Shown: positions 10,146 to 61,164 of the stretch, piece by piece
Position numbering within the stretch: position 1 is the first letter of the stretch
Layout: the number at the start of each line of letters is the position of its first letter
From: Rhodospirillaceae bacterium
GTDB lineage: Bacteria; Pseudomonadota; Alphaproteobacteria; Bin65
Assembly: GCA_028819475.1 (NCBI GenBank)
Contig: JAPPLJ010000065.1
Coordinates: 31,953 to 95,952, forward strand
Direction of reading: 5' to 3'
DNA length: 64,000 nucleotides
Notes under the pieces: generated by a model
Database searches by the model: none
What the model was told of the DNA's origin: nothing
Seen by the model: only the letters and a program-made list of their open reading frames with translations
Position numbers and translations under genes: made by a program

Positions 10146-10162
10146 GCTGACGGTCTAGAATC

Positions 10163-10198: not shown

Positions 10199-10248
10199 GC
10201 ATTTAATCTCCACTCCATCCGCTCCCGTTCGGGAAGAAGGGCGGCCCC

Positions 10249-30226: not shown

Positions 30227-30347
30227 GCGATCGCCGAACGAGAAAACCCGGTACTGGCGCGCATGGGCGCGGCTGCCGGCGCAAGACCCGCAGATGGCTT
30301 TCTTCTTCGTCCTTGAGGACTGAAGGGCTGTCGGGTATTGTCTCGCC

Positions 30348-30759: not shown

Positions 30760-30823
30760 CGATCATCCGTCGGCAAACGTTTACTGAGCCGGGACTTTCC
30801 TTAATACCCAAGACGCCGATAGT

Positions 30824-31621
30824 CTATTGGTAATCGGTCTTCGGATGTGCAACCATCATAGGAGACAGTTTGTCGTATAGCGGCGGATTATGAGGATGAT
30901 TGATTAAGTGGCCCCTTATGACAAAGGCACAGATATCCGCTAGTTGAAGAAGCGGAGATTGTTTCTTTTCTGCCCAATGCACCGTATCCCGAATGTGGCG
31001 AAGGGGTAAATACTTCCTGTGCCAGCCGCGGCGTGATAAGGTTTTATTTTGCGCCCATAACTGAACGTCACGTACAACTTTCTTAACTTCAGGGCGATCT
31101 TCCGCAATAAGGAGCGCGATTTCGTCGGGCCAAATGTCTCTTAGTACTTTTTCAACCACACACACACACTGGAAAAATGCAAGAGAGTGGACAACAGCGT
31201 CACGCCCTCGTTCGTTAATAGTAACATCTGGCGGCGTCGCAATTAGTTCGTCGCGCGGGCAATCGCCATAAACAACCGGCAGGTCGAATCTTCCGAGGGT
31301 CTCGATTAGGTCGAGCAAAGTTTCGAGCCGACGATCAAGAGGCCACACATCACGATCCTTAAAGTATTTCGTTGCACTCCAAATGTTAGTGGCGTGAAAG
31401 AAAAAACTGTCTCGATCCGCTTCCGGTATATGCTTTCTAACTAGATATGCCAGATGTTCTTCAACAGCGATCATCTGGCGGTCGCCGTCAACGATAACGC
31501 CAGCGACCACGGCCAACGGCTCCTTCCTTGAAGTGCCGCTTTCATCCAAGTAGACAACGCGCACGAGCCGCCGCCCCGCTAATGGCGAGCCGTCAAACGC
31601 TCGCACCAATGGTAAATTCAT
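30824..31621 (-). CDS. DUF3800 protein (IS passenger)
   Basis: 265-aa DUF3800 protein, a family predicted to have an RNase-H-like fold. VVYLDESGTSRKE near residue 23 holds the first acidic residues, LLIAEDRPE lies near 170 and LLQLADICAFVIRG near 228 holds the last conserved aspartate. It starts 41 bp inside the right inverted repeat with GGGGAG before the ATG. Its AT-rich, rare-codon composition differs from all neighbours, pointing to foreign origin. Similar proteins are found on phages and mobile elements; a nuclease or defence role is possible but unproven. Confidence 0.8.
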   Translation of the reverse strand: MNLPLVRAFDGSPLAGRRLVRVVYLDESGTSRKEPLAVVAGVIVDGDRQMIAVEEHLAYLVRKHIPEADRDSFFFHATNIWSATKYFKDRDVWPLDRRLETLLDLIETLGRFDLPVVYGDCPRDELIATPPDVTINERGRDAVVHSLAFFQCVCVVEKVLRDIWPDEIALLIAEDRPEVKKVVRDVQLWAQNKTLSRRGWHRKYLPLRHIRDTVHWAEKKQSPLLQLADICAFVIRGHLINHPHNPPLYDKLSPMMVAHPKTDYQ

Positions 31622-31662
31622 TTTACTCTCCCCGGATTTGGTACGGCAAGTGTAACGTTGCC

Positions 31663-31692
31663 GATTGAATCCGGGGTTCCGGTCGAAATGAC
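31663..31692. repeat. Target duplication and right end of split repeat
   Basis: gattgaatc (31663-31671) repeats the bases left of the IS. 31672-31692 completes the interrupted dispersed element, ending ggtcgaaatgac. Confidence 0.7.
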
Positions 31693-31727
31693 GGAAAGGG
31701 CAGGCAGCGCATCCCGGGCGAAGCGCC

Positions 31728-32483
31728 CTACCGCCGGCGCTTGCGTTCCCGCGACAGGGATTCGATGACGCCGCGCAGGCCGCGGACTTCCGAATCGGTC
31801 AGCTCCGCCCGGTGGAAGATGTTGCGCAGGTTGCGCACCATGACCGGGCGTTTCTCCGCCGGAATGAAATGACCGGCCTCGTCGAGCGCGCCTTCGAGAT
31901 GCGCGAACATGTTGAGCAGATCGCTTTGCAGCGCCGGCCCGTCGGGCGTCCCGGCACCCGAACCCGGCCTGGCCGCTTCCGCTGCCGCCGGACCGGCGCT
32001 CCACCATTCCCAGCCGACCAGCAGCACGGCCTGGGCGAGGTTGAGCGACGTGTGCGCCGGATTGAGCCGGGCCTCGATGATCGTGCCGGCCAGGACGACG
32101 TCGTCGTTGTGCAGCCCCTTGGATTCCTTGCCGAACAGGATGCCGTTGCGCGCGCCCGCCGCTTCGGCCCGGCGCATCGCGATGCCGGCCTCGCGCGGGC
32201 CGAGCACCGGCTTGTTCATGTCGCGCGGCCGGGCGGTCGTCGCATAGACATGGTGCAGGCCGTCCAGCGCCGCAGCGGCAGACTCATAAAGCCGGGCCGT
32301 TTCCAGAATTGGTTCGGCGCCGGAAGAGGCCGTAACGGCGGTCTCGCTGGGCCAGCCGTCCCGCGGATTGACCAGCCGCAGGTCGGACAGGCCGCAATTC
32401 ATCATGGCGCGCGCGGCCGTACCGATATTCTCGCCAAGTTGCGGTTCGACCAGGATGATCGCGGGGGGTTCGCTATCGGCCAT
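31728..32483 (-). CDS. trmJ: tRNA (cytidine/uridine-2'-O-)-methyltransferase TrmJ
   Basis: 251-aa SPOUT methyltransferase acting on Nm32 of tRNA. PAIILVEPQLGENIGTAARAMMNCG, LFGKESKGLHNDDV and SLNLAQAVLLVGWEW form the knot and SAM site. The C-terminal helical part (RNIFHRAELTDSEVRGLRGVI) matches TrmJ. It overlaps cimA by 11 bp, so the two are probably co-transcribed. Confidence 0.92.
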   Translation of the reverse strand: MADSEPPAIILVEPQLGENIGTAARAMMNCGLSDLRLVNPRDGWPSETAVTASSGAEPILETARLYESAAAALDGLHHVYATTARPRDMNKPVLGPREAGIAMRRAEAAGARNGILFGKESKGLHNDDVVLAGTIIEARLNPAHTSLNLAQAVLLVGWEWWSAGPAAAEAARPGSGAGTPDGPALQSDLLNMFAHLEGALDEAGHFIPAEKRPVMVRNLRNIFHRAELTDSEVRGLRGVIESLSRERKRRR

Positions 32484-47196: not shown

Positions 47197-47298
47197 CAAA
47201 TTGTAGCCGAATGCGCCCTCTGTCGTGTTCGGCGCTCGATAGCGCCCCCGGAATGGCGTGGGGCCCCTTGGGGTCGAACAGTCTCGGCCGGCGGTCCG

Positions 47299-47320
47299 TT
47301 TTATCAGTATACGGATAAAA
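47299..47320. promoter_or_regulatory. Inverted repeat, possible operator
   Basis: ttttatc and gataaaa flank an 8-bp centre (agtatacg), 126 bp before the FAD oxidoreductase, in an AT-rich patch of GC-rich DNA. It could be a repressor site for either divergent gene. Confidence 0.35.
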
Positions 47321-47445
47321 TATTTGGCCCTATGATCCGCGGGAAGCGTTCGGCCTGCACTTCCGCGAACGGAAGCCGCAATCGGCATGGCGGCGCCGCG
47401 CCGATAAATGACAAGCGTTGACTATCGGACACCGGTTTCTCCGCC

Positions 47446-48810
47446 ATGACCGACTATCCCGGCATGAAGACTGTCCGAATTCAGCATCGGGCGGCGCAGA
47501 TTTACCGCGGCGATGTCTGCGTGGTCGGTTCGGGCGCAGGCGGCCTCTCGGCGGCGCTGGAAGCGGCGAGGCTGGGCCGGCAGGTCGTCATCGTGGATGC
47601 CGCGCCGCATATCGGCGGCCAGGCGGTCGGTGCTGCGCTGGGCACGATCTGCGGCCTGTTCCGCAACGGGCCGGCGCCGCGGCGCCTGACCCATGGCGTC
47701 ATGGACAACCTGTTCGAAACCCTGTTCGCCCAGGGCGACGCAGCCCTGCGCCGGGTGCGCGGCACCTTCATCATCGATTATGTGCCGAACGCCTGGATGC
47801 GCTGGGCCGAGCGGCAGATCGTCGAGACCGGCATCGTCCCGCTGCCCGGCGCCATCGTGCGCCGGGTCGAACAGCGCGACGGCATCATCGAGGCACTCCA
47901 GCTCAGCACGCGGTTCGGCGACGCCAGGGTCGAGGCCGACCGGTTCATCGATGCCTCCGGCGACGCCGTGCTCCCCTGGCTGGCCGGTCAGGCAATGCGG
48001 GAATCGGATAAACAGGTGCTCGGCACGGTCATGGCGATCCTGGAAGACGTCGATACCGGCCTGTGCGCGGAATACCCCCGTTCGCTCTATCACGACCTGA
48101 TCCGCAAATACGGACGCGAATTCGGCCTGGTGCGCGCCGAGGGGCCGGTCTTCGTCGTGCCGGGCACGCGCAAGCTGCTGCTCAACCTCACCCATATCGA
48201 AACGCCGATGGAAACGGCGGGCCTCGCGCTCGCCGGCATCGAGGGGCGGCGCCAGGTCGACGCCTTGCTCCGCCTGTTCAAGCGCGAACTGCCCGAAGCG
48301 TTCCGCGACGCGAAGGTTGCGGTCTACGGCAACGCCGGCATCCGCCAGACCCGGACCATCGTCGGCCGCAGCCACGTTACGGTGGACGATGTCGCGACCG
48401 GCCGCCGGCCGCCCGATGCCATTGCGCGCACAACCTGGCCGATCGAGTTGCACGGCGACATGGCGGGCGCGCACTGGACGATCTTTGACGAGGACCACAT
48501 CCACTACATCCCCTTCGGCGCCATGCTGCCCGAGGGCCTGCACAATGTCGTGGTCGCCGGACGCTGCATCGACGCCGAGCCGGCGGCGCTGGCGAGCCTG
48601 CGGGTTATGGGACCGTGCTTCGCCATGGGCCGTGCCGCCGCCGCGGCAACGCATCTGAACCGCAGCGGCTCGCTGCACCAGATCGACATGGCCGCCCTCC
48701 AGGACGCCGTGAAGGACAATCTCGCTCTCGAGACGACCGACCCCTGGGCCGGGGAAGTCGTCAGCGAGACCGGGCCGGAGGCCTCGGGAAGCGGCGTATC
48801 TCCCACCTGA
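47446..48810 (+). CDS. FAD-dependent oxidoreductase (FAD_oxidored family)
   Basis: 454-aa flavoprotein. The dinucleotide motif VCVVGSGAGGLSAALEAARLG lies near residue 25, GGQAVGAALGTICGLF near 65, RFIDASGDAVLPWLAG near 165-180 and VVVAGRCIDAEPAALASLRVMGPCFAMGRAA at the C-terminus, where FAD is completed. No iron-sulfur cysteine set is seen. It sits just before an ABC importer, so a role in oxidising an imported compound is possible. ATG 47446 is used; ATG 47464 is an alternative. Confidence 0.85.
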   Translation: MTDYPGMKTVRIQHRAAQIYRGDVCVVGSGAGGLSAALEAARLGRQVVIVDAAPHIGGQAVGAALGTICGLFRNGPAPRRLTHGVMDNLFETLFAQGDAALRRVRGTFIIDYVPNAWMRWAERQIVETGIVPLPGAIVRRVEQRDGIIEALQLSTRFGDARVEADRFIDASGDAVLPWLAGQAMRESDKQVLGTVMAILEDVDTGLCAEYPRSLYHDLIRKYGREFGLVRAEGPVFVVPGTRKLLLNLTHIETPMETAGLALAGIEGRRQVDALLRLFKRELPEAFRDAKVAVYGNAGIRQTRTIVGRSHVTVDDVATGRRPPDAIARTTWPIELHGDMAGAHWTIFDEDHIHYIPFGAMLPEGLHNVVVAGRCIDAEPAALASLRVMGPCFAMGRAAAAATHLNRSGSLHQIDMAALQDAVKDNLALETTDPWAGEVVSETGPEASGSGVSPT

Positions 48811-48935
48811 TCCTCATTTGATGCACAAAATTTGCATTTCCCGGCAGTTGAGGCTTCTGTTTGCGCGAGATTTCGGCCAGATGGATCGCCAGAAAGTCGG
48901 CAGCAAGCCGACCTCGTCACGAGAAACCGGCAACC

Positions 48936-49703
48936 ATGGACCTGCACATTGACGGACTGAACCACCGTTATGGCGACATGCCGGTACTCGACGGCATCGA
49001 TCTTCGGATCGAGAGCGGCCGGATCGTCTGCCTGATCGGGCCGTCGGGCTGCGGAAAGTCCACCCTGCTCCGGCTGATCGGGGGCCTTGAGCAGCCCACT
49101 GACGGCGCGGTCCGGCAGGTCGGCGAGCCGCCCGAGGGCTGCCTCAACCCGCTGACCTACATCTTCCAGGATTTCGCCCTCCTGCCCTGGCGGACGGCGC
49201 GGGGCAATATCAGCCTGGTGCTGGAAGACCACGGCCTGAGCGAACGCGAGACCGGGCGGATCGTCGACGATGTGCTGGCGCGGACCGACCTGTCGGAGTT
49301 CGGCAACGCCTTTCCGCGCCAGCTATCCGGCGGCATGAAGCAGCGCGTGGCGATCGCCCGGGCGCTCGCCGTCAACCCGGCGGTGTTCCTGATGGACGAG
49401 CCGCTTTCGGCGCTCGACGGCCAGACCCGCGCCCTGCTGATGGACGACCTGATCGGCCTGTGGACGCGCGAGCCCTTCACGGCGGTCTACGTTACCCATA
49501 ATCTCCAGGAGGCTGTGCGCCTGGGCCACAAGATCGTCGTGCTGTCGCGCCGGCCGGGCCGCATCCGCGACCAGGTGGCGATCGACATGCCGCTCGAGGA
49601 CCGGTCCGACGCGGTGGCCGAACTGGCGCAGATCCAGCGCCGATTGTGGGAAATGTTGCGCGAGGAGGCGCAGGCCGCCGACCGGGAGCTTGCCGATGCC
49701 TGA
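48936..49703 (+). CDS. ABC transporter ATPase (TauB/SsuB/nitrate type)
   Basis: 255-aa ATPase. Walker A GPSGCGKST, Q-loop FQDFALLPWRTARGN, signature LSGGMKQRVAIARAL, Walker B FLMDEPLSALD and switch VTHNLQEAVRLG are all the sulfonate/nitrate/taurine type. ATG 48936 matches the family start. It overlaps the permease gene by 8 bp. Confidence 0.93.
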   Translation: MDLHIDGLNHRYGDMPVLDGIDLRIESGRIVCLIGPSGCGKSTLLRLIGGLEQPTDGAVRQVGEPPEGCLNPLTYIFQDFALLPWRTARGNISLVLEDHGLSERETGRIVDDVLARTDLSEFGNAFPRQLSGGMKQRVAIARALAVNPAVFLMDEPLSALDGQTRALLMDDLIGLWTREPFTAVYVTHNLQEAVRLGHKIVVLSRRPGRIRDQVAIDMPLEDRSDAVAELAQIQRRLWEMLREEAQAADRELADA

Positions 49704-50502
49704 TGCACGAACCCATGCCGGGCGGCCGGTTGCGTTCCGGGGCGGCGGCTTCGCGCCGCGCCCGGTCGGCCCGCTCGGTCCGGCGGTGTTCATCGTCGTG
49801 ATCGGGCTGTGGGAACTGGGCTCGCAGATCGGCTGGATTACGCCGCTGATTCTGCCGGCGCCCAGCGAAGCCTTCGCGGCGCTGGCTTATCTGGTCGAGA
49901 CCGGCGAAATCTGGCGGCACTTGGAAGCATCGGTCTCGCGCCTCGTGATCGGCTGGAGCGCCGGCATGATCCTCGGCGTCGCCGTCGGCTTCTCGATCGG
50001 CCTGTTCTCCATCGCGCGATCGGGGCTTGTGCCGGTGGTCGCCGCCCTGTTCCCGATCCCGAAAATCGCCCTGCTGCCGTTGTTCATCGTCTGGTTCGGC
50101 ATCGGCGAGGGCTCGAAGATCGCGACCATCCTGTTCGGCACCTTCTTCCCGACCGTGATCGCCACCTACGGGGGTGTCGACAATGTCGACCGCAGCCTGA
50201 TCCGCATGGGCCAGTCGTTCGGGCTGAGCTGGCTCTCGATCGTGCGCAAGATCGTCCTGCCGGGGGCGCTGCCGGCGATCCTGTCGGGGACGCGCATTTC
50301 CGCCTCGATCGCCATCATCCTGCTGGTTGCGGCCGAAATGATCGGCGCGGAATACGGCATCGGCGCCTATGTGCTGCTGGCCGGCAATCTGGCGGCGACC
50401 GACCAGCTGATCGCCGGAGTCGCCATGCTGTCGGTGCTCGGCCTCGTCGTATCCTGGCTGATCGGCCGCGCCGAGCGCTACTTCCTGCGCTGGCGGTCGT
50501 AA
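49696..50502 (+). CDS. ABC transporter permease (TauC/SsuC type)
   Basis: 268-aa inner-membrane permease with about six spans. The EAA-like loop VDRSLIRMGQSFGLSWLSIVRKIVLPGALPAILSGTRISAS is typical for sulfonate, nitrate and thiamine-precursor importers. It is coupled to the ATPase and convergent with the binding-protein gene at 50560. Confidence 0.92.
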   Translation: MPDARTHAGRPVAFRGGGFAPRPVGPLGPAVFIVVIGLWELGSQIGWITPLILPAPSEAFAALAYLVETGEIWRHLEASVSRLVIGWSAGMILGVAVGFSIGLFSIARSGLVPVVAALFPIPKIALLPLFIVWFGIGEGSKIATILFGTFFPTVIATYGGVDNVDRSLIRMGQSFGLSWLSIVRKIVLPGALPAILSGTRISASIAIILLVAAEMIGAEYGIGAYVLLAGNLAATDQLIAGVAMLSVLGLVVSWLIGRAERYFLRWRS

Positions 50503-50534
50503 ACGAAAAGGGCCGGCCCCGCGGGACCGGCCCC
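50501..50534 (-). terminator. Intrinsic terminator between convergent genes
   Basis: GC-rich stem (gggccgg / ccggccc) that on the minus strand is followed by ttttcgttt, a good terminator for the binding-protein gene. The plus strand could use the same hairpin. Confidence 0.6.
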
Positions 50535-50559
50535 GTTGCGCCGTCCGCCGGCGCTGCCG

Positions 50560-51594
50560 TCAGTTGGTCTTGACGAAGCTGGTGTCGACGACCTGGTCCA
50601 TCGTGATGTCCTTTTTCACGAAGCCCTGGGACTGGTTCCACTCCAGCTGATGCTTGATGCTCTTCAGGTCGAGCGACAGGCCCGGGTTGAGAAACATGGC
50701 GCCGGCCTTGATTGAGCGCGCCGCCTTGGCGTAGGGCCGCGAGGTATAGACGTACTTGTGGATCGTCTTGACCATCGCCTCAACCGCCGCCGGGTCCTTC
50801 TTCTGGTCGAGCATGACGCGGTTGAAGTCCGCCATGCCTTTCGCGTAGGCGCGCAGGAATTTCTCCACGAGCCCCCGTCTTTTCTCGATGTTGCGTGTCG
50901 AGGTGATGAGCGCCGTGATCTGGTAGTCGGGATGCCAGTCGCGCAGCCAGCCGACGATCTTTGCGGCGCCGCCCCGTGCCAGCGGCTTGGCGATATGGGG
51001 CACCATGAACATGGCGTCGACCTGGCCGGATTTGAGCGCCCCGATCATCGCGCCGACCTTCTGGAGCGGCCGCACGCGGATGTCCTTGATCGAGAAGCCG
51101 AACTTCTCCGCCGTTACGGCGCCCATATAGTGGAAGGTGGAGCCGAACTGGGTCAGCGCCAGCGACTTGCCCTTCAGATGCGCCGGCTTCGTGAGCCCGG
51201 CCTCATACGCCTTCTTGGACGCCAGAAGGGCCATTCCGTCGACACCCTTGCGCTCGTGCAGCACGCCGCCGACCGCCCTGATCGCGCCCTTGCCGGCGAG
51301 GTTGATGAAGCCGCCGGTGATGCCGGCAATGGCGAAATCCGCATCGCCCGCCGCCACGGCGACCGCGGTTGGCGCCGCCGCCTGGAAGAACCGGAATTCG
51401 ACGTCCAGGCCTTCCTGCTTGAAATAGCCCTTTTCGAGCGCGACGAAGCCGGCGCTGTGCGACGTGAAGCGCAGGGCGCCGACGACCAGCTTGTCGGCAG
51501 CTAGCGCGGTCTGCGCGATTCCCGCTGTTGCGATCAGCGCTGCCCCGGCGCCGAGAAGCGCACGGCGCAAATAGAGGCGGTTTCGCATCGTCAT
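50560..51594 (-). CDS. ABC substrate-binding protein (TauA/SsuA/NMT1 type)
   Basis: 344-aa periplasmic receptor. A signal peptide (LRRALLGAGAALIATAGIAQTALA) precedes VVGALRFTSHSAGFVALEKGYFKQEGLDVEF, the standard start of the sulfonate/nitrate/THI5-like group, and LKGKSLALTQFGSTFHYM. It is divergently placed relative to the usual operon order: convergent with the permease but probably its partner. The ligand is undetermined; a sulfonate would fit the xsc genes 10 kb away. Confidence 0.88.
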   Translation of the reverse strand: MTMRNRLYLRRALLGAGAALIATAGIAQTALAADKLVVGALRFTSHSAGFVALEKGYFKQEGLDVEFRFFQAAAPTAVAVAAGDADFAIAGITGGFINLAGKGAIRAVGGVLHERKGVDGMALLASKKAYEAGLTKPAHLKGKSLALTQFGSTFHYMGAVTAEKFGFSIKDIRVRPLQKVGAMIGALKSGQVDAMFMVPHIAKPLARGGAAKIVGWLRDWHPDYQITALITSTRNIEKRRGLVEKFLRAYAKGMADFNRVMLDQKKDPAAVEAMVKTIHKYVYTSRPYAKAARSIKAGAMFLNPGLSLDLKSIKHQLEWNQSQGFVKKDITMDQVVDTSFVKTN

Positions 51595-51742
51595 GTCGTT
51601 TCTCTCCCTTGGATAACGGTCGGATTTCTGTCGGATCGACAGTCGTCGATTTCGGCTGCAAGCGCGCGTGTTAAACGACTTTGCACCGGTTTTCAAACGG
51701 CAACGCCGGAAGACTCGATTTGTACTCCGAAAGTTCGACGCT

Positions 51743-52246
51743 TCATGCCGCTCCTTTCCGGCCGAAGGGCGCGCCGCCGCGCAATTCATACGCCGTTTTG
51801 CCGGTAGTTACCCATCGGATAACCTCCTCAATCAGTGCAATAAAGTCTCGTTTTTCCGGTCCCCGAAGCGCGCACTCCCAAACCGTGAGGCACCGCCATC
51901 CGGTTTCGGACAGCGCCAGTCTCACTTTCTCATCCCTTTCTCTGTTCTGTTGCAGTTTCTTTGCCCAGAACTCGCGCCGAGTGGCCGGTAGACGAAACAG
52001 CGAGCAGTCATGTCCGTGCCAGAAGCAGCCGTGAATCAAAACTGCCGCGCGATACTTTGGAAATACGATGTCGGGCCTTCCCGGCAGCTTGGGGTCGTTC
52101 GTACGGTATCTGAATCCCCGCCTATGCAGAGCCTTTCGTATTGCGACTTCCGGCCCGGTGTCCCGGCTGCGTACCGAAGCCATCATCCGGCTTCGGGTAA
52201 TGGGATCCACGGTATCAGCCAACGTCGACGCCTCCAGAACAGCCAA
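51743..52246 (-). CDS. vsr: Very-short-patch-repair type endonuclease Vsr
   Basis: 167-aa Vsr-family nuclease: RSRMMASVRSRDTGPEVAIRKALHRRGFRYR, then LPGRPDIVFPKYRAAVLIHGCFWHGHDC with the catalytic Asp and the zinc-binding His/Cys, and WRCLTVWECAL. Vsr nicks T:G mismatches made by deamination of 5-methylcytosine, or acts as a restriction nuclease in some systems. It is the last gene of the minus-strand island with a cytosine-5 methyltransferase. Its 5' neighbour is 68 bp away. Confidence 0.93.
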   Translation of the reverse strand: MAVLEASTLADTVDPITRSRMMASVRSRDTGPEVAIRKALHRRGFRYRTNDPKLPGRPDIVFPKYRAAVLIHGCFWHGHDCSLFRLPATRREFWAKKLQQNRERDEKVRLALSETGWRCLTVWECALRGPEKRDFIALIEEVIRWVTTGKTAYELRGGAPFGRKGAA

Positions 52247-52314
52247 GAGCGCGATGGGTACGCGGTACTTGCCTCCATACGCTTGATGTACTTGAGCCCG
52301 CTTGTTTCCGTCGG

Positions 52315-52740
52315 CTAGGTCTCTCCAATCACAGGCTGACCCTGCCGCGCATAGAACGCGGAAAAGCGGGACACGATATCCTTGATGAAGCCCGGCGCGA
52401 TCCTTGCGTCCAGACGCTCGTACTCGGTTCCGATCCTGTCCAATCGCGCGGTCTGAAGTTTGCGGAAATCGAGATAACCGCCGTCAGCCACTTTTGAGTT
52501 CGGCAACCAGTGATAGCAGGACTTGTCGTTGTTCCGTTTAAGCTTCCTTTTTCGGTCCGCATTTGCCTTGAGGGAAACGTACACCGTCTCCTCCGGCACG
52601 ACTTCCGCCAAGATGATCGAGTCGACGTTTGGCCTGCCGTCCTTGCGTAACACCAAATCGCACGCCGGCGTCATGACGACATGGCATGTGCCGTCATTCC
52701 TTCGCTTCACCAGACTGCCCGTCGTCAGCGCATGGTCCAA
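52315..52740 (-). CDS. Unknown island protein, start unclear
   Basis: 141 aa from TTG 52740, with VVMTPACDLVLRKDGRPNVD near residue 21 and KSCYHWLPNSKVADGGYLDFRKL near 75. No family is recognised. The same frame stays open and protein-like (PEEVYLAPP) back into the response-regulator gene, up to a TAG, with no ATG, GTG or TTG before 52740. GAGGAGG lies 17 nt before the TTG, which is too far. It may be made by re-initiation or frameshifting from the response regulator, whose stop is 29 bp upstream. Confidence 0.65.
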   Translation of the reverse strand: MDHALTTGSLVKRRNDGTCHVVMTPACDLVLRKDGRPNVDSIILAEVVPEETVYVSLKANADRKRKLKRNNDKSCYHWLPNSKVADGGYLDFRKLQTARLDRIGTEYERLDARIAPGFIKDIVSRFSAFYARQGQPVIGET

Positions 52741-52768
52741 GGGAGGCGCAAGGTAGACCTCCTCGGGA

Positions 52769-53338
52769 TTAAGTGGGCGTCTCGTCTCCTTCGAGGTCCG
52801 CTACCATGTGGCCCAACGCATAGCGCAGCAACGCCTTTTCCGTTCGGTCGGCGTTCGAGCGTCCGTAACCGATCCAAGTGTCGAGAGTCGGCAGCAGGTT
52901 CTTGAGAAAGACCCTGTTCAAGCGTTCCTCAAGCAGTCCACGTCCACCCATGATCCGCGTTAGACCGATCATGTAGGGCTCCCAAAGACGGTGAAGAACG
53001 TCTTCGAATCCGTCCTTTCCCTTCGTGAACACCTCGATCACGGGAGGATTGTCGTCAGCATCATCCGGAGTCCCCGTCAAGACCGCGACGGGAACGCGAA
53101 AATGCTCCTTAATCTCATCGATCAGTTCCCCACCCTCAGTCGTGTCCTTGCCGAGATTGAGATCCACGATGGCCGCGTCGATAGAGGCATTCAAACTACT
53201 CTTGGCATCGTCCAGCGTCCTGCAGACATGCATCTCGATGTCCCTGCCATGCTGCTGGACGTATTCGCCCAATACATCCTTGTACTGGCTTACGAGAGTG
53301 TCTTCGTCTTCGACCAGAAGCAACTGAAGTGCCGTCAC
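52769..53338 (-). CDS. Response regulator receiver protein
   Basis: 189 aa from GTG 53338, which overlaps the kinase-like stop by 4 bp. The receiver domain is complete: acidic pocket E10/D11 in LLLVEDEDTLV, phospho-acceptor D59 in AAIVDLNLG, T88 in VAVLTGT and K106 in VFTKGKD. Residues 120-189 (helical, PYMIGLTRIMGGRGLLEERLNRVF and LDTWIGYGRSNADRTEKALLRYALGHM) are not a known DNA-binding output domain. It probably signals through protein contact within the island. Confidence 0.88.
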   Translation of the reverse strand: MTALQLLLVEDEDTLVSQYKDVLGEYVQQHGRDIEMHVCRTLDDAKSSLNASIDAAIVDLNLGKDTTEGGELIDEIKEHFRVPVAVLTGTPDDADDNPPVIEVFTKGKDGFEDVLHRLWEPYMIGLTRIMGGRGLLEERLNRVFLKNLLPTLDTWIGYGRSNADRTEKALLRYALGHMVADLEGDETPT

Positions 53339-55506
53339 GTCGTTTCCCCTTTCGCTGGCCCGTCGACTTCCACCGGCTGTAGCCGGAACCACACGCCACC
53401 GTCGTGTTCCAGCGCTCTGAGCTCCAAGCCGTTACGCGTCGCCCCTTCCCCGGCGATCGCCAAGCCCAAGCCCATCCCCTCCGGTTTGGTCGAAAACTGG
53501 GGATCGAAGATCACGCCGGTTTCGATGTGGTCTGGCTCGATGCCCGGTCCCGTATCCCTGTAATCGATGTGCAGGAGCCGCCCTCCATCCGTCGAAAAAT
53601 TGATGGCAATCCGCCTTTCCGGAAACTCTCTCGTCGCCAACCAGTAGAGGCTGTTGTCGATCAAATTGGTGAAAATCGCCTGGATGTCCTGTCGCCAACA
53701 TAGGAATGTGAAGGCCCTGTCGCCGTTGATCGTGCAGGTAACGCCCGTTTCCTTCATTTCTCCGGAAAATGTCTCCACCGCCCTCTCGACGATCGCTCTC
53801 AACGCCTCGGACTTCTTCTTCGACCGTCGTTGCGCGGCGAGCGGGTCCAGCCGGCCGAAAAGAGTGACGAAATCGGCCGCGCTGTCCGCTATTCCCTCGG
53901 CCAGCTCGACGATTCTTGAAGCCTTGCTTGGGTCACGCGTTTCTGCAAACGCATCCGCAGCCCTGCGGAGCAGCGGATGTTGGTTGCGGAAGTAGCTCAG
54001 AGGCCGCCTGCCTTCGTGGAGGACCACATTGATGATCTTGCCGAGCGTGGCCTGACCCTGGTACACAGCGATCGCGTCACGCAGTCGACCGACGGCTTCG
54101 CCCCGTTGCCGCTCGTCCGTCTCGATCAGGGCGATCACCTTGGATGTCGTCCTCTGACTCACCCGGGCTCCGGTAAGGGTGGACCGGACGTCGCGTTTCA
54201 GGGTGTCGAAGGAATAAAGCCGCTCCAGTTCGCGCTCTACCTTCAGCGTCCTTCTGCTGAGACCCGCGCGCTGGCGGTAAACGTACCGCTTTTCTTCCAG
54301 CCGGCCGATTACCGTCTTCGTGATCTCTTTCAACCTTCCGAAAGCGTCGTTCTCGATGAGACCGTCCCTCGCGCTCTTCTCGATGAGCTGCGAGTGCTCT
54401 TCCGACTGGATCTGCACGTAGCCTATGACCTGGTTGTTTCCGATCCGACGCGCCGGCGCCTGTATCCGCTGCTCGTTGAGTTTCAGCCAATCGAATTCGG
54501 GATCGCCCAGAGGCCGCAGGCGGAAGCCGTTTCGGTACACCCCGATCCCGTTGTACTCATTGAGCAGTTGACGCGCCTGAAGTTTGCCCAGGTAGTTGCC
54601 CACGTCGTCCTTCAACCCGCGTTGGATTAGCTGTTCGATCGATGCGGAATCGCGGTCATAGACGCGGATGTCGATTTCGAGGTCTCCGCATCCCGTGGGT
54701 CCGCCGAGGTTAATTGGAATCTCTTCGGTTGATGCGTTGCGGGATTTCTGCTGCGAGTACACGAGGCTCCCGGTCCCGCCAGCCTCTATGGTCCCGGCGA
54801 TCCTGTAATCGAAGTGCTCCACCAGCGGATAGGGTTCCACGAGCGCGTCAATGTCATTGACGCCCGGAACCTCTGTGATGCGCAGTATCACCTCAAACGT
54901 CTGCTCCATCGCCATCGTCGGAAATGGCGGCATAAGCTTCCTGAGTTCGAACTGAAGCTTCGTAAACTGTGAGTCCTTCCAAGCCTTCAGACGATCCTCG
55001 TCAATCACTATGACCAAGGTCGTGCCAGCCGGCTCGTCCACCTCCGTCGTTTCTATGAGAATTTCCACGTCGCCGAGAAAGTCCGCATCCTCGAAGTCTC
55101 CCCACTGCAGGTAGAGCGTCGTCTTCTCGCCAGACGGCGTCGTCGTCTCCAACAGCAGATCCGTCCCAAGGATCGAAGCGGCATAACGGCCGATCCCCTT
55201 CCGCCCCTGCATGGTTCTGCCGCTAGGGCTTTTGCCCCCTCGATCTTCCTTGTCGGAGGTCGACGGAACCATCCATTTGTTGATTACGGTGTCGCGGGAC
55301 ATGCCGTGTCCATGGTCGGCCACCGAAATCCGGTACTGTCTGTCCTCGCCTCTCTCGAAACCGACCGTGACGTCCGCCGAGTCCGCGTCATAGGCGTTCT
55401 TGACCAATTCAATCACGGCCGCGTGCGGATCCTGAATCAGGTCCCGACCTATCGTCAGAATGTGCCTGCCTGCGGGACGAATCGTGTACGTGCCAGCCTC
55501 AGGCAT
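53335..55506 (-). CDS. Dual GHKL ATPase / histidine-kinase-like protein
   Basis: 723 aa. The N-terminal ATPase is Hsp90/MutL-like: [10 protein letters not shown] (33-42), DHGHGMS (64-70) and [10 protein letters not shown] (101-110). A middle domain runs about 200-390. A helical stretch (about 395-435) leads to [11 protein letters not shown] (496-506), which looks like a histidine-kinase H-box, with H497 the candidate phospho-acceptor. A second ATPase follows: NLIDNSLYW (614-622), DTGPGI (651-656) and GMGLGLAI (677-684). The 5' end overlaps the methyltransferase stop by 8 bp and the 3' end overlaps the response-regulator start. No signal peptide or membrane span is seen, so it senses something in the cytoplasm. 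Confidence 0.88.
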
Positions 55507-56761
55507 CCCAGTCCTGCCTTATCTTGGCCGCGATTCTGCGTGAAAGGAGAACCGGGACGGCATTGCCGATCTGCCGGAACGCTTCGGTCCGGGCCGGACG
55601 GTCACTCGCACCTTCAAAATAGTAATCGTCCGGAAAAGTCTGGAGGCGGGCTGCCTCCCGAGGCGTGATCGACCGGTTCTGTTCAATGTCGGGGTGTATG
55701 TAGTAGTGCCCGTCCTTGCAGATGTGAGCCACCACAGTCTGCGAGAACGGAAGATCTGCGGCCACCACCTTGAATCTGTCGGTGAACGAAACCCCATTGC
55801 GATGCGTCTTCAGGTGTGGAGGAAGCGAGCCGTACCGAAGCCTCGACTTGTGTTCGTTCCACTGCCCAACGGCGATGCGGTAAATTTCGCGATCCTAGTC
55901 CGTCTGCGGCCGGGCGACGTGCCACGTCACGGGTGCTGTGCTCCGAACTCCCGCATCCTCCTGCCACTTGCTTTCGCATGGCAGCCGGTTGCACGGCCGA
56001 ACCGTGCCCTCGCCCGCTCCGAGCGTTGGCAGATCACGGAATACCTCGCTCACCTTCACGTCCGGGATCCATTGCTCGGGCTCAGGGTAAGTGCCGCCCG
56101 TGCCCTCCCGCCAACCGACCAGCACCACCCGTTTCCGGTTCTGCAGTACCCCATAGTTCCTAGCCCACAACGTCGAGTACTCAGTCTCGTAACCGATTTG
56201 CCGGAAGAGTTGCCGCATGGCCTCAAAGTAGCCCCGGCCGTCGCTGTCCTTCGCCGACAGTAGGCCCGTCACGTTCTCGAACACGAACCGCCTTGGACGG
56301 TATTTTCCGAGGAATTCCGCGTAGCACTTGTAGAGATAGTTTCTCTTGTCCTCCACCATCCGGTCGGGATCGCGGGAACGCCCGACTACGGAATACGCTT
56401 GGCAAGGCGGTCCACCTACGAGCACATCGAGTTCGCGCCCATTCAGCAGCGAGTCGATCTTGCCGTATAATCGCCCCAAGGTATCCGGTCTGATTTCATC
56501 GTTGACGACGGACTGCGCCACGCTCCGCGGTACTTCCGCATACAACTGTTCCCTGCCAATCTCGCCTGTCAGGTAGTCCGCGTACAGGTCCTCGCGGCCA
56601 GTGGTCCTCAGCCAGTGATACGCCATGCGGGTACGGAGCGTGTTGCAGGCAGCCAAGTCGGCTTCCACATGTGCCACCGGCTCGTAGCCTTCCTGAATGA
56701 ATCCTTCGGAAAGCCCTCCGCCTCCGGCGAAAAGATCTATGAAATTCAAAGTGCTAGACAC
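55499..56761 (-). pseudogene. Cytosine-5 DNA methyltransferase interrupted by in-frame TAG
   Basis: 420-codon C5 methyltransferase frame from GTG 56761. Motif I is FIDLFAGGGGLSEGF (7-21), motif IV GGPPCQAYS (116-124, catalytic C120), VI FENVTG (161-166) and VIII QNRKRVVLVGW (207-217). Codon 289 is TAG (55895-55897), flanked by ...ARPQTD and [12 protein letters not shown] in the same frame. Motifs IX-X follow ([30 protein letters not shown]). Only one base separates it from an intact gene. The stop falls in the variable target-recognition region, between the parts that exist as two chains in split enzymes such as M.AquI, so residual activity is conceivable. Confidence 0.9.
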
Positions 56762-57016
56762 TTGCCCCGCGCGTTGTAGAGGAGCGGCCAGTGAACCTGT
56801 CCCGCCCGCTGGACCAGTTCGTCCTCGCGAATCGCACATTTTCTGCTCGGCCACAAGGTCGAGCGATCCTCGGACCTTTCGTTCACCACCGCCAACCGAA
56901 TTCTTGCCTCGTGTATCGCCGCGACAACGGCTTTGGTGCGAGCCCTCGAGATCGTATAGTGTGCCTTGCGCGCCGGCCTCCCGCGCCTCGCCACTGCAAT
57001 CGTCCGGGTAAGCATC

Positions 57017-58102
57017 ATGAACATTGCCACACCTGCTCCCGACAGCGTCGACCCCGGCGCCTTTACCGCCGTTCCGGTAGTCGATATCGGCAGCCGGGCG
57101 GAAAGCGCCGCGGCGCGCCGGGAACTGGCGGACCGGCTGGGCGGCATTTGCCACCATGTCGGTTTCGCCGTGGTCACCAACCACGGCATCGCGCCCGACG
57201 TCATCGACGCCGTGTTCGCGAAGATTGCCCGCTTCTTCGCCCTGCCCGAGGCCGACAAGCGCTGCATCGACAAGCGCAATTCGCGCCATTTCCGCGGCTG
57301 GGAACCGGTCGGCAGCGAATACACCAACAACCGGCCGGACATGCGCGAGCAGATCGACCTGTGGACCGACCATCCGGCCCGGCCGATCGACACCACGCCC
57401 CGCTACCTGCGCCTGCTCGGGCCGAACCAGTGGCCGCCGGAAGACGTGGCGCCCGGCTTCAGGCCGGCGCTCGAGCGCTGGTTCGCCGACATGTCGGACC
57501 TGGCCGACGACCTGCTGCGCCTGCTCGCTCTCAGCCTGGAGCTGGAGGAGGGCCATTTCGACGCCCTGTTCGGCGCCGAGCGCATGTCGCTCACCAAGCT
57601 GATCGGCTATCCGGAGACGCCGCCCGGCCAGTTCGGCGTCAACGCCCACCACGACGCCGGCTTCCTGACCCTGCTCGCGCCGGGCAAAACGCCGGGCCTG
57701 GAGATCGAGAACGCCAACGGCGACTGGATTCCGGTGCCCATCGTACCGGGTTCCCTGGTCCTCAACCTGGGCGAGGTCCTGCAGAAGATGACCGGCAACT
57801 ATTTCGTCGCCACGCCGCACCGGGTGGTCACCCGCGAACCGCGCCTGTCGGCCGGCTATTTCCACGGGCCGTCGCTCGACATGGCGCTCGATCCGCTGCC
57901 GCTGGCGCCGGAATTCGCCGAAGCCGTCGCCCGCAGCCCGCGCCACGCCGGGGCCGGCTTCATGGCGCAGCGCGACGAGACCGAGGCCGGAGTCGGCGAC
58001 ATGCAGAGCAGGCACCATCCCGGCACCTACGGCGAGCAGCTCTGGAACTATTTCGCGCGCAGCTATCCGGACAACGTCGCGCGCTACTATCCCGCGGACT
58101 GA
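57017..58102 (+). CDS. Isopenicillin-N-synthase-like 2OG-Fe(II) oxygenase
   Basis: 361-aa oxygenase. The DIOX_N part (FTAVPVVDIGSR, GFAVVTNHGI, FFALPEADKR) is followed by the iron triad: NAHHDAGFLTLL (His, Asp) and ATPHRVV (distal His), with RLSAGYF carrying the 2-oxoglutarate-binding Arg/Ser. It is of plant- and fungal-like IPNS topology, common in alphaproteobacteria. The last 16 bp overlap the convergent cupin gene. The substrate is unknown. Confidence 0.88.
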   Translation: MNIATPAPDSVDPGAFTAVPVVDIGSRAESAAARRELADRLGGICHHVGFAVVTNHGIAPDVIDAVFAKIARFFALPEADKRCIDKRNSRHFRGWEPVGSEYTNNRPDMREQIDLWTDHPARPIDTTPRYLRLLGPNQWPPEDVAPGFRPALERWFADMSDLADDLLRLLALSLELEEGHFDALFGAERMSLTKLIGYPETPPGQFGVNAHHDAGFLTLLAPGKTPGLEIENANGDWIPVPIVPGSLVLNLGEVLQKMTGNYFVATPHRVVTREPRLSAGYFHGPSLDMALDPLPLAPEFAEAVARSPRHAGAGFMAQRDETEAGVGDMQSRHHPGTYGEQLWNYFARSYPDNVARYYPAD

Positions 58103-58617
58103 AGCGCCTCTTCCGCGGCCACGATGTGGGATCGCGGGATGAAATCCTGGTTAGCGCCCTCGATGCGGATCAGCCGCGTCGGCCGTGTCCGCCTCGGGGA
58201 ATGGACGGCGCCGACGCCGTAGAAATGGGCGTCGCCGGGCGTGAGCGTATAGGTCCGGTCCGGCACGACGCGGATGGGCCTGCCATCGCCGCCGCGGTCG
58301 ACGATGCGCCAGTCGGTCATTTCGGTCGTGCCCTCGGCCTGGCCGTAGATCGCCCAGGTCGTGCCGTGATCGTGGGGCTTGCCGACCGACGACCCGGCGT
58401 TGACATGGCCGCAGATGCAGAAGCTGAGCTCCGGATCCTCGTACAGAATCTCGCGCACCGGCTCGCCGTCCTTGCGGTCGGGCAGCATAGCGGCCGTGAA
58501 CGCGCGGTCTTTCAGGGCTTCGCCGAGAATGCCGCACAAGGCCGCCGCCCCGTCCGGGACCGGCGAGGCCTTCATAGCGTCGCGCAATCGCTGCGCCAGG
58601 GTTTCCAGGTCCATCAT
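58087..58617 (-). CDS. Cupin / cysteine-dioxygenase-like protein
   Basis: 176-aa single-cupin protein. [25 protein letters not shown] carries the His-x-His metal ligands, and [14 protein letters not shown] the third His. The overall pattern resembles the cysteine-dioxygenase/3-mercaptopropionate-dioxygenase superfamily, which oxidises thiols to sulfinates. That fits the sulfur setting (xsc and pta on the same strand). Its ATG overlaps the pta stop. Confidence 0.8.
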
Positions 58618-59570
58618 GTCGTCTCGTCCGCCGCTTGCGCCGCTGTCACGGCAATCATGTGATAGACATCGTCTTCTGTACAGCCCCGCGACAGGTCGTT
58701 GGCCGGCCGGGCGAGGCCTTGCAGGGTCGGGCCGAGAGCGACCGCGCCGCCCAGCCGCTGGGCGATCTTGTAGCCGATATTGCCGGCGTTGAGGTCCGGG
58801 AAGATCAGCACGTTGGCCCGGCCGGCGACCGGCGATCCCGGCGCCTTGGACGCCGCGACATCGGGCACCAGCGCGGTGTCCACCTGCAATTCGCCGTCGA
58901 TGTCGAGCCCCGGTTCCTGCTCCCGGACCAGCGCTGTCGCTTTCTGGACGGCGGCGACCTTGCCGTGCCGGGCGCTGCCCTTGGTGGAAAAGGAGAGCAT
59001 GGCAACCCGCGGCGTGCCGCCGACCAGTTGCCGGTAGCTTTGCGCCGACGCCCGGGCGATGGCGGCGAGTTCCTCCTCGTCCGGCGCGACGACGAGGCCG
59101 CAGTCGGCGAAGATCAGCGCCCGGTCCGGCCAGACCATCAGGAAGAAGCTGGAGACCAGGGCGTAATCCGGGTGCTTGCCGATGACCTGAAGCGCCGTGC
59201 GGACGGTATCGGACGAGGTCGCCACCGCGCCGCCGAGCGTGCCGCCGGCCAGCCCGTCCCGGACCATCAGGGCGGCGAAGGTGAGCGGATGGCGCACCGC
59301 CGCGCGCGCCGCATCCCGGTCGACGCCGCGATGCTTGCGCAGGGTCCAGTAGGTTTCGGCCAGCCGCTCCGCGTCCGGCGACACCGCCGGATCGACGATT
59401 TCAACCCCCTCTCCGGCCCCGCCGCCGTCGCGCAGCAGCGTGATCCGCGCCAGTCCGTCGGCCGCCGCCCGCGCCGCGCCTCCGGCGATCCGCGGGTCGC
59501 CGCCCTCGGGCAGTACGATATGCGGCCGCAGCGCCCGGGCGCGGTCGGCAAGGGTTTCGAGAACGGACAC
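58614..59570 (-). CDS. pta: Phosphate acetyltransferase
   Basis: 318-aa Pta of the short (no N-terminal DRTGG domain) type: [54 protein letters not shown] and [24 protein letters not shown]. It converts acetyl phosphate, the product of Xsc, to acetyl-CoA, and the neighbouring xsc on the same strand supports that role. It overlaps the cupin gene by 4 bp (ATGA). Confidence 0.93.
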
Positions 59571-59653
59571 GATATCGCCGCAAAGCCTGTTGTGCAGTCC
59601 GGCCGCTATTCAATACTATCCGCATTGAGATTGCGACGGCTTCGGAGGCTCTC

Positions 59654-60301
59654 ATGGCGGATACGCCGAACTGGCACATCGTCGGCGACTGGTTCGACAA
59701 TTGCAGTTGCGCCGTCGCCTGCCCCTGCACCTTCGCGCAGCCGCCGGACAACGGCTTTTGCGACGGGGTCCTCTTCTGGCACGTCAAGCACGGGCATTAC
59801 GGCGACACCGTGCTCGACGACCTCGCCTTCGTGCGGGTCGGCCGCTGGGAAGGCGACCTGTGGGCCGGCAAGGTCAGCGGCAAGGCTGGCGTTTTCGTCG
59901 ACGACCGCGCCGACGACGCCCAGGCCGAGGCCCTGACGGCCATCATCGGCGGCCGCGCGGGCGGTTTCATGGGCAAGGTGAACGCCTTGTTCACCGGGGG
60001 CCGCAAGGTGATCGGCGTCGAACGCGCGAAAATCTCCTTCGAGATTACGCCGAACCAGTCGCGCTGGGGCGTCGAGGTCGCCGGCAAGGTCAAGGCGTGG
60101 GCGGAGGCGCTGACCGGACCGACCAGCAATCCGGGCGAATACCCGCGGCTGGCCAACGCGCCGGGATCGGAGACCGGGCCCGGCCCGCAGCTGGTCACCT
60201 GGGGGAAGTCGACCGTGTGCAATGTCGATGCCTTCGGCTTCAAGTTCTCCTGGGACGTCAACTCCTCCAAGCACATCCCGTTCGACTGGACCGGCCCGTA
60301 G
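59654..60301 (+). CDS. DUF1326 protein
   Basis: 215-aa DUF1326 protein with a cysteine cluster NCSCAVACPCTF near residues 17-28, typical of the family, and SKHIPFDWTGP at the end. The family nearly always sits beside a DUF2182 membrane protein, which lies 3 bp downstream on the opposite strand here. The metal-ligand-like cysteines suggest metal handling; no activity is established. Confidence 0.85.
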   Translation: MADTPNWHIVGDWFDNCSCAVACPCTFAQPPDNGFCDGVLFWHVKHGHYGDTVLDDLAFVRVGRWEGDLWAGKVSGKAGVFVDDRADDAQAEALTAIIGGRAGGFMGKVNALFTGGRKVIGVERAKISFEITPNQSRWGVEVAGKVKAWAEALTGPTSNPGEYPRLANAPGSETGPGPQLVTWGKSTVCNVDAFGFKFSWDVNSSKHIPFDWTGP

Positions 60302-60304
60302 CGG

Positions 60305-61063
60305 TCAAAGCAACATTGCGACGCCGGCGGCCAGCAGGGCCGCGCTGTAGACCCAGGTCAGCCACGCCGGCAGCTGCGGCCATTTCTCGAGCGCCACGGC
60401 GACGGTGAGGACGGCGATCCAGACCGGGTTCATGACGCCGGCAACGAACAGCAGGAGCATGAGCGCCCAGCAGCATCCGGCGCAGTAGAGGCCGTGCCTG
60501 AGGCCCATCGCGAAGGCGCCGCCCGTGCCGTCGCGCCATTCCGCCAGCAGGAAGCCCTGCGGCGTCCGGCAGTATTTCAGGCAGGCCTGCTTCAGCGGCG
60601 TCAGCTGGTAGAGGCCGGCGAGGATCAGCAGGCCGGCGGTCAGCCCATCGGAACGGCTGACGATCATCGGCATCAGCATGCCGCCGGCCTGCAAAGCCCA
60701 CTGCGCGCCGGCGGCGAGCGCGGAAAATCCGATCCACACGAGCAGGTAGGCGCCGGCGAAGGCGAGCGAGCGCGGCGTCGCCCGCCCCGCCGGCGCGTTG
60801 CGGCGTTCCAGGGCGTCGAACGTCAGGATCATCGGCGCGGCCGAGGGCAGCATCATCGCCACCATCATGCCGCCCCACATGACGAAAACGGCAACCGCCG
60901 TCGCCGGGGACCAGGCCGTGTCGAGCGGCATCGCCAGCCGGACGGCCGGATGGGACATGTCGACCGTCATCCAGATGACGAACGCCCAGCCCGCCACGAA
61001 GACGAGCCCCAGCGCCGTCAGGATTTCAGCGTGGCGAAGAAGCCGGCGGGCGAGCGCGTGCAT
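60305..61063 (-). CDS. DUF2182 integral membrane protein
   Basis: 252-aa polytopic membrane protein, about six to seven spans. VMWGGMMVAMMLPSAAPMIL and LYCAGCCWALMLLLFVAGVMNPVWIA are the conserved DUF2182 segments with Met- and Cys-rich motifs. It pairs with the DUF1326 gene and is convergent with it. A metal-related membrane role is inferred from the motifs. Confidence 0.87.
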   Translation of the reverse strand: MHALARRLLRHAEILTALGLVFVAGWAFVIWMTVDMSHPAVRLAMPLDTAWSPATAVAVFVMWGGMMVAMMLPSAAPMILTFDALERRNAPAGRATPRSLAFAGAYLLVWIGFSALAAGAQWALQAGGMLMPMIVSRSDGLTAGLLILAGLYQLTPLKQACLKYCRTPQGFLLAEWRDGTGGAFAMGLRHGLYCAGCCWALMLLLFVAGVMNPVWIAVLTVAVALEKWPQLPAWLTWVYSAALLAAGVAMLL

Positions 61064-61164
61064 GGCCGATCGTTCCCGGATGGGTGAGCACCAGGCGAAT
61101 CTAGCACCGACGCTCGCGGTACGCAGATTTTGACTGGCAGAACGGAGCAGCGCCGTCCGGCATC

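What the first reader, a model, noticed from the sequence alone, without database searches (positions are those of the whole stretch)
51743..56761. Methyltransferase, dual-GHKL kinase, response regulator, unknown protein and Vsr in one coupled operon
Five minus-strand genes with overlaps of 8 and 4 bp among the first three link a C5 DNA methyltransferase to a soluble protein with two different GHKL ATPase domains, a receiver protein with no DNA-binding output, an unknown protein and a Vsr nuclease. The receiver has all phosphotransfer residues (D59, T88, K106), and the kinase-like half has a candidate H-box (H497). It looks like a restriction or defence system in which a signal, rather than sequence alone, controls the nuclease or methylase. 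GHKL ATPases near methylases in restriction-modification contexts are established (MORC/MutL-like families). The two-component pairing inside such a cassette is what stands out. The system-level function is inference.
Basis: partly seen in the sequence, partly recalled or inferred. Interest (0 to 1): 0.82.

Follow-up and report, generated by a model that had tools for sequence, protein, structure and literature searches.

The report
Damaged copy of methylase-linked signalling cassette
This is an acquired but apparently broken copy of a widespread gene set that ties a DNA-marking enzyme to an unusual two-part signalling pair; the kind is already in print, although this branch of it is not matched by the published family models.

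Summary
The genes are there, but two are broken and two of the five are one gene. Read against relatives, 51743-56761 holds a C5 methyltransferase interrupted by an in-frame TAG (55895-55897), an open 723-aa dual-GHKL kinase, one response regulator split by a frame break (the "receiver" and the "unknown protein" are its halves), and an open Vsr. They lie in 5,136 bases (51780-56915) that same-genus genome G003 lacks; nine flanking genes align to G003 in single frames.

The association is real. Among 80 relatives the regulator directly follows the kinase in 67 of 74 loci with room; methylase and Vsr ORFs cluster within 2.5 kb. H497 is kept in 39 of 39 aligned kinases, D59 in 33 of 33 receivers.

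The kind was described in 2021 (HEF_HK/Response_reg_2, PMC8011034). This branch misses both Pfam models but shares the layout and the regulator's unnamed C-terminal domain. The kinase model joins a MORC/SMCHD1-like half to a histidine-kinase half. Defence, phosphotransfer and DNA sensing are inference. Verdict: new variant of a known kind; this copy probably no longer works as a system.

The parts
51780..56915 (.). 5,136-base segment absent from same-genus genome G003; holds the whole cassette except the last 12 codons or so of Vsr
   Evidence: blastn: window 47264-51779 matches G003:C13 78235-82750 and window 56916-61082 matches 82752-86950, 93.8 and 94.0%; GC 58-60% in 52001-56000 against mostly 63-70%
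55895..56761 (-). C5 cytosine methyltransferase, part before the stop (GTG start at 56761)
   Evidence: PF00145 E 2.3e-37; PADLOC DrmMII PDLC02649 positions 3-294 of 422, E 6.2e-93
55895..55897 (-). in-frame TAG that interrupts the methyltransferase
   Evidence: L053 is open here; TAG also ends the output-half frame at 52315, so it serves as a stop in this cassette
55499..55894 (-). rest of the methyltransferase frame, beyond the stop; C-terminal conserved block
   Evidence: PF00145 profile 269-323 of 324; PDLC02649 297-418, E 1e-59; 80% identical to L053 over 130 codons
53335..55506 (-). open 723-aa soluble-type kinase: N-terminal MORC/SMCHD1-like GHKL half plus helical H-box (H497) and C-terminal HATPase_c
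52769..53338 (-). response regulator, receiver and helical half (GTG start at 53338; D59, T88, K106)
   Evidence: 66% identical to L053 over 189 codons
52765..52786 (-). zone of the frame break between the two regulator halves
   Evidence: E. mori and L053 regulators run through this point in one frame
   Evidence: no Pfam match; 58% identical to L053 over 150 codons
51743..52246 (-). Vsr endonuclease, open; its last codons and stop lie in the flank
   Evidence: PF03852 E 1.5e-32; TIGR00632 148.4 bits over cut-off 97.85; PADLOC Vsr E 7.1e-41

Best explanation
The window holds an acquired, damaged copy of a widespread cassette: C5 methyltransferase, a kinase whose sensor half is a MORC-like GHKL ATPase, a response regulator with an unnamed output domain, and often Vsr. 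Shown here: gene identities, the two lesions in this copy, the extra segment relative to G003, and in relatives the linkage and the conservation of ATP-binding and phospho-acceptor residues. Inferred: in intact copies the MORC-like half binds or clamps DNA and, depending on ATP and on the state of the DNA (methylation, ends or topology), switches the kinase half; H497 passes phosphate to D59 of the regulator, whose output domain then acts, probably against foreign or wrongly marked DNA. The methylase sets the self mark and Vsr repairs the mutations that C5 methylation causes. In this genome the methylase stops before its C-terminal conserved block and the regulator's output half is out of frame, so the system is probably dead or reduced to kinase plus Vsr. 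I hold the identity and damage at about 0.9 (sequence as deposited) and the mechanism of intact copies at about one in three; the figure below is for the whole statement.
For: Lesions. Extra segment; nine flank proteins in single frames against G003. Linkage: regulator next to kinase in 67 of 74 loci, methylase within 2.5 kb in 39 of 55, Vsr in 27 of 55, with the far-flank control. Co-inheritance: rho 0.82 kinase-regulator, 0 of 2000 permutations reach it. Residues: H497 39 of 39, both ATP sites, D59 33 of 33. Folds: kinase model matches SMCHD1, MORC2, MORC3 and Hsp90 ATPase modules and HK853; receiver Z 18.0. Constraint: dN/dS about 0.1 for kinase and receiver half against L053.
Against: No phosphotransfer, DNA binding, methylation or defence was measured. 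The methylase is missing within 2.5 kb in 16 of 55 loci and Vsr in 28 of 55; in the closest group in 4 and 6 of 14. The regulator was not found in 7 of 74 loci. Vsr position varies: right after the regulator in only 10 of 55. The match of the kinase model to MORC-type modules is loose (TM-score by query about 0.3, 12-14% identity; Hsp90 scores alike), and AlphaFold pTM is 0.69. The methylase past the stop is at least as conserved as before it (80 against 71% identity), so the stop is very recent or an error of the sequence. Distance correlations do not separate joint transfer from shared descent.
Confidence: 0.5

Rival explanations
1. The kinase-regulator pair is a controller: it sets the level or activity of the neighbouring methylase or of an adjoining R-M system (a timing switch, in role like C proteins of R-M systems) and is not itself an effector.
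For: The pair occurs beside different R-M types: type I (L056), a Z1/AIPR/DUF4420 operon (L060), an N6/N4 methylase (L062) and an HNH gene (L063), Z1 in Hymenobacter. PMC8011034 offers the same speculation.
Against: No named DNA-binding domain in the regulator. Cassettes such as L040, L061 and L064 show no restriction gene next to them, judged by reading ORF starts only.
Confidence: 0.25
2. The two lesions are errors of sequencing or assembly and the genome carries a working four-gene cassette.
For: No sign of relaxed constraint past the stop (80% identity against 71% before it); whole copies are the rule in relatives. Reads are not available here.
Against: Two separate lesions in about 5 kb, while nine flanking genes over about 9 kb align to G003 in single frames.
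Confidence: 0.25
3. Neighbours by accretion: methylase, Vsr and the kinase-regulator pair sit in the same mobile islands but do not act together; methylase plus Vsr is the classical modification-and-repair pair.
For: Methylase or Vsr is absent near part of the kinases; kinase-methylase correlation is only 0.41 over 54 loci.
Against: About 21-fold higher methylase density near the kinase than at 5-9 kb; overlapping frames here and in G275 (L040); rho 0.59 for 26 loci with window-type methylases.
Confidence: 0.12
4. The breaks are functional recoding: a methylase naturally made as two chains and a regulator made by programmed frameshifting.
For: Some C5 methylases are natural two-chain enzymes split in this region (M.AquI, recalled). 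Both halves of both genes stay conserved.
Against: Relatives have whole genes; after the TAG the first possible start codon lies well inside conserved sequence; no established slippery site was recognised by eye at the break.
Confidence: 0.04

Closest known systems
HEF_HK / Response_reg_2 two-component-like elements with R-M genes (Bellieny-Rabelo et al. 2021, PMC8011034; abstract, text parts 1-5 of 7 and passages seen)
   Same: Dual-HATPase kinase directly beside a receiver protein with a conserved Asp; C5 methylase upstream; Vsr most often right after the regulator; same kind of regulator C-terminal domain
   Different: Window branch scores no match to PF19191 or PF19192; H-box reads HEG here, HEF or HEL/HEM in the 10 loci seen; regulator about 340-430 aa where complete against ORFs of 547-817 aa
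MORC and paraMORC ATPases of R-M operons (Iyer et al. 2008, PMC2292703; passages seen)
   Same: GHKL ATPase near cytosine methylases and Vsr; kinase N-terminal half resembles MORC2, MORC3 and SMCHD1 modules
   Different: No receiver mentioned there (0 hits for 'receiver'); here a histidine-kinase core is fused behind the ATPase half; usual helicase and nuclease partners are not in this insert
DISARM methylase DrmMII
   Same: Best PADLOC match of both methylase halves
   Different: None of the cassette proteins matches another DISARM gene
Dcm-Vsr modification and repair pairs (recalled)
   Same: C5 methylase with Vsr in one strand
   Different: Kinase and regulator stand between them
Detocs, a phage-defence system built on two-component logic (recalled; only papers mentioning it were listed)
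   Same: Kinase-receiver logic in a defence setting
   Different: Not compared by sequence here; no methylase or MORC-like half as recalled

Membership tests
HEF_HK (PF19191) | Match to the Pfam model over its cut-off (24.1 bits) | tested here: not met
   No match in the window kinase nor in G000, G001, G275, L002, L003, L004 records; one off-target 12.6-bit match in G011
HEF_HK (PF19191) | HATPase_c_3 + H-box + HATPase_c layout | tested here: met
   Pfam domains at 28-140 and 607-709; H497 in a long helix 451-523 of the model; invariant in 39 of 39
HEF_HK (PF19191) | No transmembrane segments | not tested
   No predictor was run
Response_reg_2 (PF19192) | Match to the Pfam model over its cut-off (27 bits) | tested here: not met
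   0 of 7 genomes or records at E up to 10
Response_reg_2 (PF19192) | Homologous C-terminal domain | tested here: met
   hhalign probability 96.1, E 2.8e-9 over 149 columns, one comparison; hmmsearch passes its threshold for 5 of 10 proteins
Two-component system | Phospho-acceptor His, ATP-site motifs, receiver Asp/Thr/Lys, adjacent genes | tested here: met
   Position 88 is T or S in 32 of 33, position 106 is K in 23 and R in 10 of 33; adjacency 67 of 74
Two-component system | Phosphotransfer from kinase to regulator | not testable with these tools
   Needs purified proteins
Type II R-M system | C5 methyltransferase with a cognate restriction enzyme | tested here: not met
   Methylase interrupted; no restriction enzyme but Vsr named in the cassette; kinase hits to restriction-enzyme profiles cover the ATPase only. 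A distant or unnamed enzyme is not excluded
DISARM | Core genes drmA, drmB, drmC beside drmMII | tested here: not met
   No such match among six cassette proteins; only these and nine flank genes (Pfam) were examined
MORC/paraMORC GHKL-S5 ATPase | GHKL plus S5-like module fold | tested here: met
   Foldseek SMCHD1 6mw7_D E 2.4e-12, MORC2 9cdj_A E 1.2e-10, but Hsp90 8h77_B E 4.2e-11 is level with these
MORC/paraMORC GHKL-S5 ATPase | MORC-specific sequence motif | not tested
   Not aligned with MORC proteins
Vsr | Vsr domain over curated cut-off | tested here: met
PemK/MazF toxin fold for the regulator's output domain | Significant profile match | tested here: inconclusive
   hhalign probability 2.1; one PemK-like phage protein at rank 29, E 0.037, in BFVD

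The most novel reading that the evidence does not exclude
A second, unnamed family of methylase-linked phosphorelays, spread over bacteria and archaea, in which a MORC-like DNA-clamp ATPase takes the place of a histidine kinase's sensor, so that the methylation or topological state of DNA is turned into a phosphoryl signal that drives a regulator with an output domain of unknown kind, shared with the HEF_HK systems, possibly as phage or plasmid defence.
Probability: 0.3. Interest if true: 0.78.

Novelty: new variant of a known kind. Interest (0 to 1): 0.42.

Why it matters
If intact relatives work as inferred, the state of DNA would be a direct input to two-component signalling, and MORC-type ATPases (chromatin silencers in eukaryotes) would be linked to a phospho-switch in bacteria and archaea. 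Some relatives (L061, L064) are compact and open in every frame of the cassette, so the idea can be tested. For this genome the practical lesson is annotation: the 'unknown protein' is the regulator's output half and the methylase is interrupted.

Tried and rejected
The unknown ORF as its own gene: rejected. DISARM because of the DrmMII hit: rejected, no core gene among the cassette proteins. Plain membership of PF19191/PF19192: rejected on the models; homology is supported for the regulator, while the kinase match (10 of 10 loci) covers mainly the kinase core and could partly be general histidine-kinase similarity. Output domain as PemK/MazF-like: a lead only, not significant. Output domain in PDB sequences: none; by fold it was barely tested, since the receiver fills the lists, so I do not claim a new fold. 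phrog_4575 (unnamed) matches 5 of 30 output domains, best E 1.4e-8; not followed. Pfam on 30 output domains gave only single-member hits, best DUF3467 E 0.00064. Phage records: no match of the L053 regulator. Viral contigs: none confirmed from one scan with the window kinase. Junction repeats: none, each side searched alone. Promoter and terminator scans: 0 and 3 found against 1.4 and 4.9 in shuffles. Literature searches: among the listings I saw no experimental test of this cassette; subscription papers and preprints are mostly not held.

The regulator count uses 74 of 80 loci, the methylase/Vsr count 55 of 80 (enough flank), the density control all 80. Kinase alignment A5: window plus 38 of 80 loci; regulator alignment A4: 32 of 80 loci plus the two window halves; A6: 29 loci plus the window half. 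One search uses the same loci plus L002-L004 and L040-L042. The regulator profile was built from six proteins, three of them picked because they stood next to the kinase.
Full report
WHAT IS THERE. Pfam names a C5 methylase, a protein with HATPase_c_3 at 28-140 and HATPase_c at 607-709, a receiver below Pfam's cut-off, and Vsr. Two corrections follow. First, the methylase frame carries a TAG at 55895-55897; the part before it matches PADLOC profile PDLC02649 (DrmMII) at 3-294 and the part after it at 297-418 of 422. In L053, a contig of a Bryobacterales MAG, the same protein is uninterrupted and 74% identical over 415 aa without gaps. Second, the 'receiver' and the 'unknown protein' are two halves of one response regulator. 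Regulators of Enterobacter mori (357 aa) and Hymenobacter (385 aa) align to both window frames, that of Campylobacter jejuni (340 aa) to the second. Of 71 regulator-profile rows from the 80 related loci, 61 span the whole profile in one ORF, 3 are cut by a contig end and 7 are partial, one of these an unrelated receiver. TAG ends the output-half frame itself, which argues against TAG being read as an amino acid.

HOW IT GOT HERE. In same-genus genome G003 the two flanking genes stand side by side. blastn matches window 47264-51779 to G003:C13 78235-82750 and window 56916-61082 to 82752-86950, at about 94%, leaving 5,136 extra bases in the window. GC is 58-60% at 52001-56000, against mostly 63-70%; one other bin, 30001-32000, is as low. 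G003 could have lost the segment instead. The low GC and the rarity of the cassette (of 385 class genomes only the window's own, G275, G011 and G001 have a regulator match beyond the receiver) favour gain. Nine flank proteins align to G003 in single frames. Against L053, dN/dS is about 0.1 for the kinase (0.107), the receiver half (0.101) and the methylase past the stop (0.081), and dS is saturated in two of five comparisons; the methylase past the stop is 80% identical, before it 71%. So the lesions are recent, or errors of the sequence.

THE FAMILY. A scan of genome contigs with an alignment of five kinases kept the best 80 of 544 relatives, among them records of Bryobacterales, Gammaproteobacteria, Bacteroidales, Clostridia, Streptomyces, Anaerolineales and archaea (Methanosarcina L060, Methanoregulaceae L088); many are MAGs, so some assignments may be wrong. 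The regulator follows the kinase directly in 67 of 74 loci with at least 600 bp behind it. Of 55 loci with enough flank, 39 have a C5 methylase and 27 a Vsr within 2.5 kb; Vsr directly after the regulator in 10. In the closest group (at least 500 bits) 10 of 14 have the methylase and 8 of 14 Vsr. Methylase ORFs number 56 in 356.1 kb within 2.5 kb of the kinase and 3 in 403.8 kb at 5-9 kb; Vsr 33 and 0. Kinase-regulator distances correlate at rho 0.82 (69 loci), kinase-methylase at 0.41 (54; 0.59 for 26 with window-type methylases), regulator-methylase at 0.52 (48), kinase-Vsr at 0.42 (35); none of 2000 permutations reached any of these. That does not separate joint transfer from shared descent. 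On plasmids, 390 records have a kinase match and 64 have one covering at least 80% of the query; the C. jejuni plasmid read is typed conjugative.

ACTIVE SITES AND FOLDS. In 39 kinases H497 and the ATP-site residues E33, N37, D64, G66, G68, K103, G104, G106 and N614, N618, G653, F667, G677, G679, G681 are invariant; position 498 is E or D in 38 of 39. In 33 receivers D59 is invariant, position 88 is T or S in 32, position 106 is K in 23 and R in 10. The window kinase model (mean pLDDT 81.8, pTM 0.69) matches SMCHD1, MORC2, MORC3 and Hsp90 ATPase modules over about 440-500 columns and HK853 over about 240 columns; the matches are loose (TM-score by query 0.2-0.34). The L053 regulator model (mean pLDDT 89.3) has a receiver at 4-123 (Z 18.0, rmsd 1.8, 124 residues, to 4mld), helices to 183 and a C-terminal domain of strands with a final helix. 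That domain keeps G9, P26, C28, R133, G135 and P137 in 30 of 30 sequences, has no Pfam match in the window copy and no PDB sequence match. A PemK/MazF relation was tested and not supported.

RELATION TO WHAT IS KNOWN. PMC8011034 (2021; [quoted passage not shown] Its authors also met a regulator split in one genome and whole in others. So the layout is not new. The window branch does not reach those Pfam models, reads HEG at the H-box where the 10 HEF-side loci read HEF, HEL or HEM, and has a shorter regulator. The two branches share the regulator's C-terminal domain (96.1% probability). Response_reg_2 itself was found in 10 of 398 phylum genomes. PMC2292703 (passages) ties MORC and paraMORC ATPases to R-M operons with methylases and Vsr and does not contain the word 'receiver'; in L060 and L003 the present cassette sits beside a Z1 operon of that type.

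MECHANISM. Shown: parts, conservation, linkage, lesions. Inferred: the MORC-like half senses DNA and gates H497 autophosphorylation; the regulator's output domain is the effector; the methylase supplies the self mark; Vsr is the repair companion. No restriction gene was seen next to cassettes such as L040, L061 and L064, judged from ORF starts only, so either the output domain or Vsr does the damage, or the system is regulatory. I hold the first at roughly one in three. In this genome the methylase lacks its C-terminal block and the regulator its in-frame output, so function as a system is unlikely if the sequence is right.

VERDICT. Observation partly confirmed; interpretation partly supported; new variant of a known kind; interest 0.42.

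Noticed in passing
L095 (Actinobacillus genomosp. 2, complete chromosome), 9001-9783: Only the first 257 residues of the kinase remain beside a methylase of the window type, and no regulator was found: another decayed cassette.
   Followed up: partly
L060 1484-8869 and L003 5996-10300: The kinase-regulator pair stands beside a Z1-domain operon (HATPase_c_3 protein, Z1, DUF4420, AIPR in Methanosarcina; DUF3883, ATPase, Z1 in Hymenobacter).
   Followed up: partly
L056 426-11526: The cassette lies between a HsdM gene and a HsdR gene of a type I R-M system in a Bacteroidales MAG.
   Followed up: partly
L004 and plasmid hits H3-H40: Conjugative Campylobacter plasmids carry the kinase-regulator pair convergent with a methylase; in several nearly identical records the kinase match comes in 2-3 pieces under more than one annotated gene.
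   Followed up: no
L042 7971-11241 (same-genus genome G001): A different, distant kinase-regulator pair (33% kinase identity) in the same genus, without a window-type methylase in the stretch read.
   Followed up: partly
L129 (Acinetobacter), around 9001-11046: A window-type methylase (547 bits) beside a distant kinase (27% identity) with no regulator of either profile found.
   Followed up: no
window 30001-32000: A second low-GC bin (57.2%), possibly another acquired segment.
   Followed up: no
output domains of L-loci in A6: Five of 30 output domains match phage family phrog_4575 of unknown function (best E 1.4e-8), so the domain may also occur in phages.
   Followed up: no
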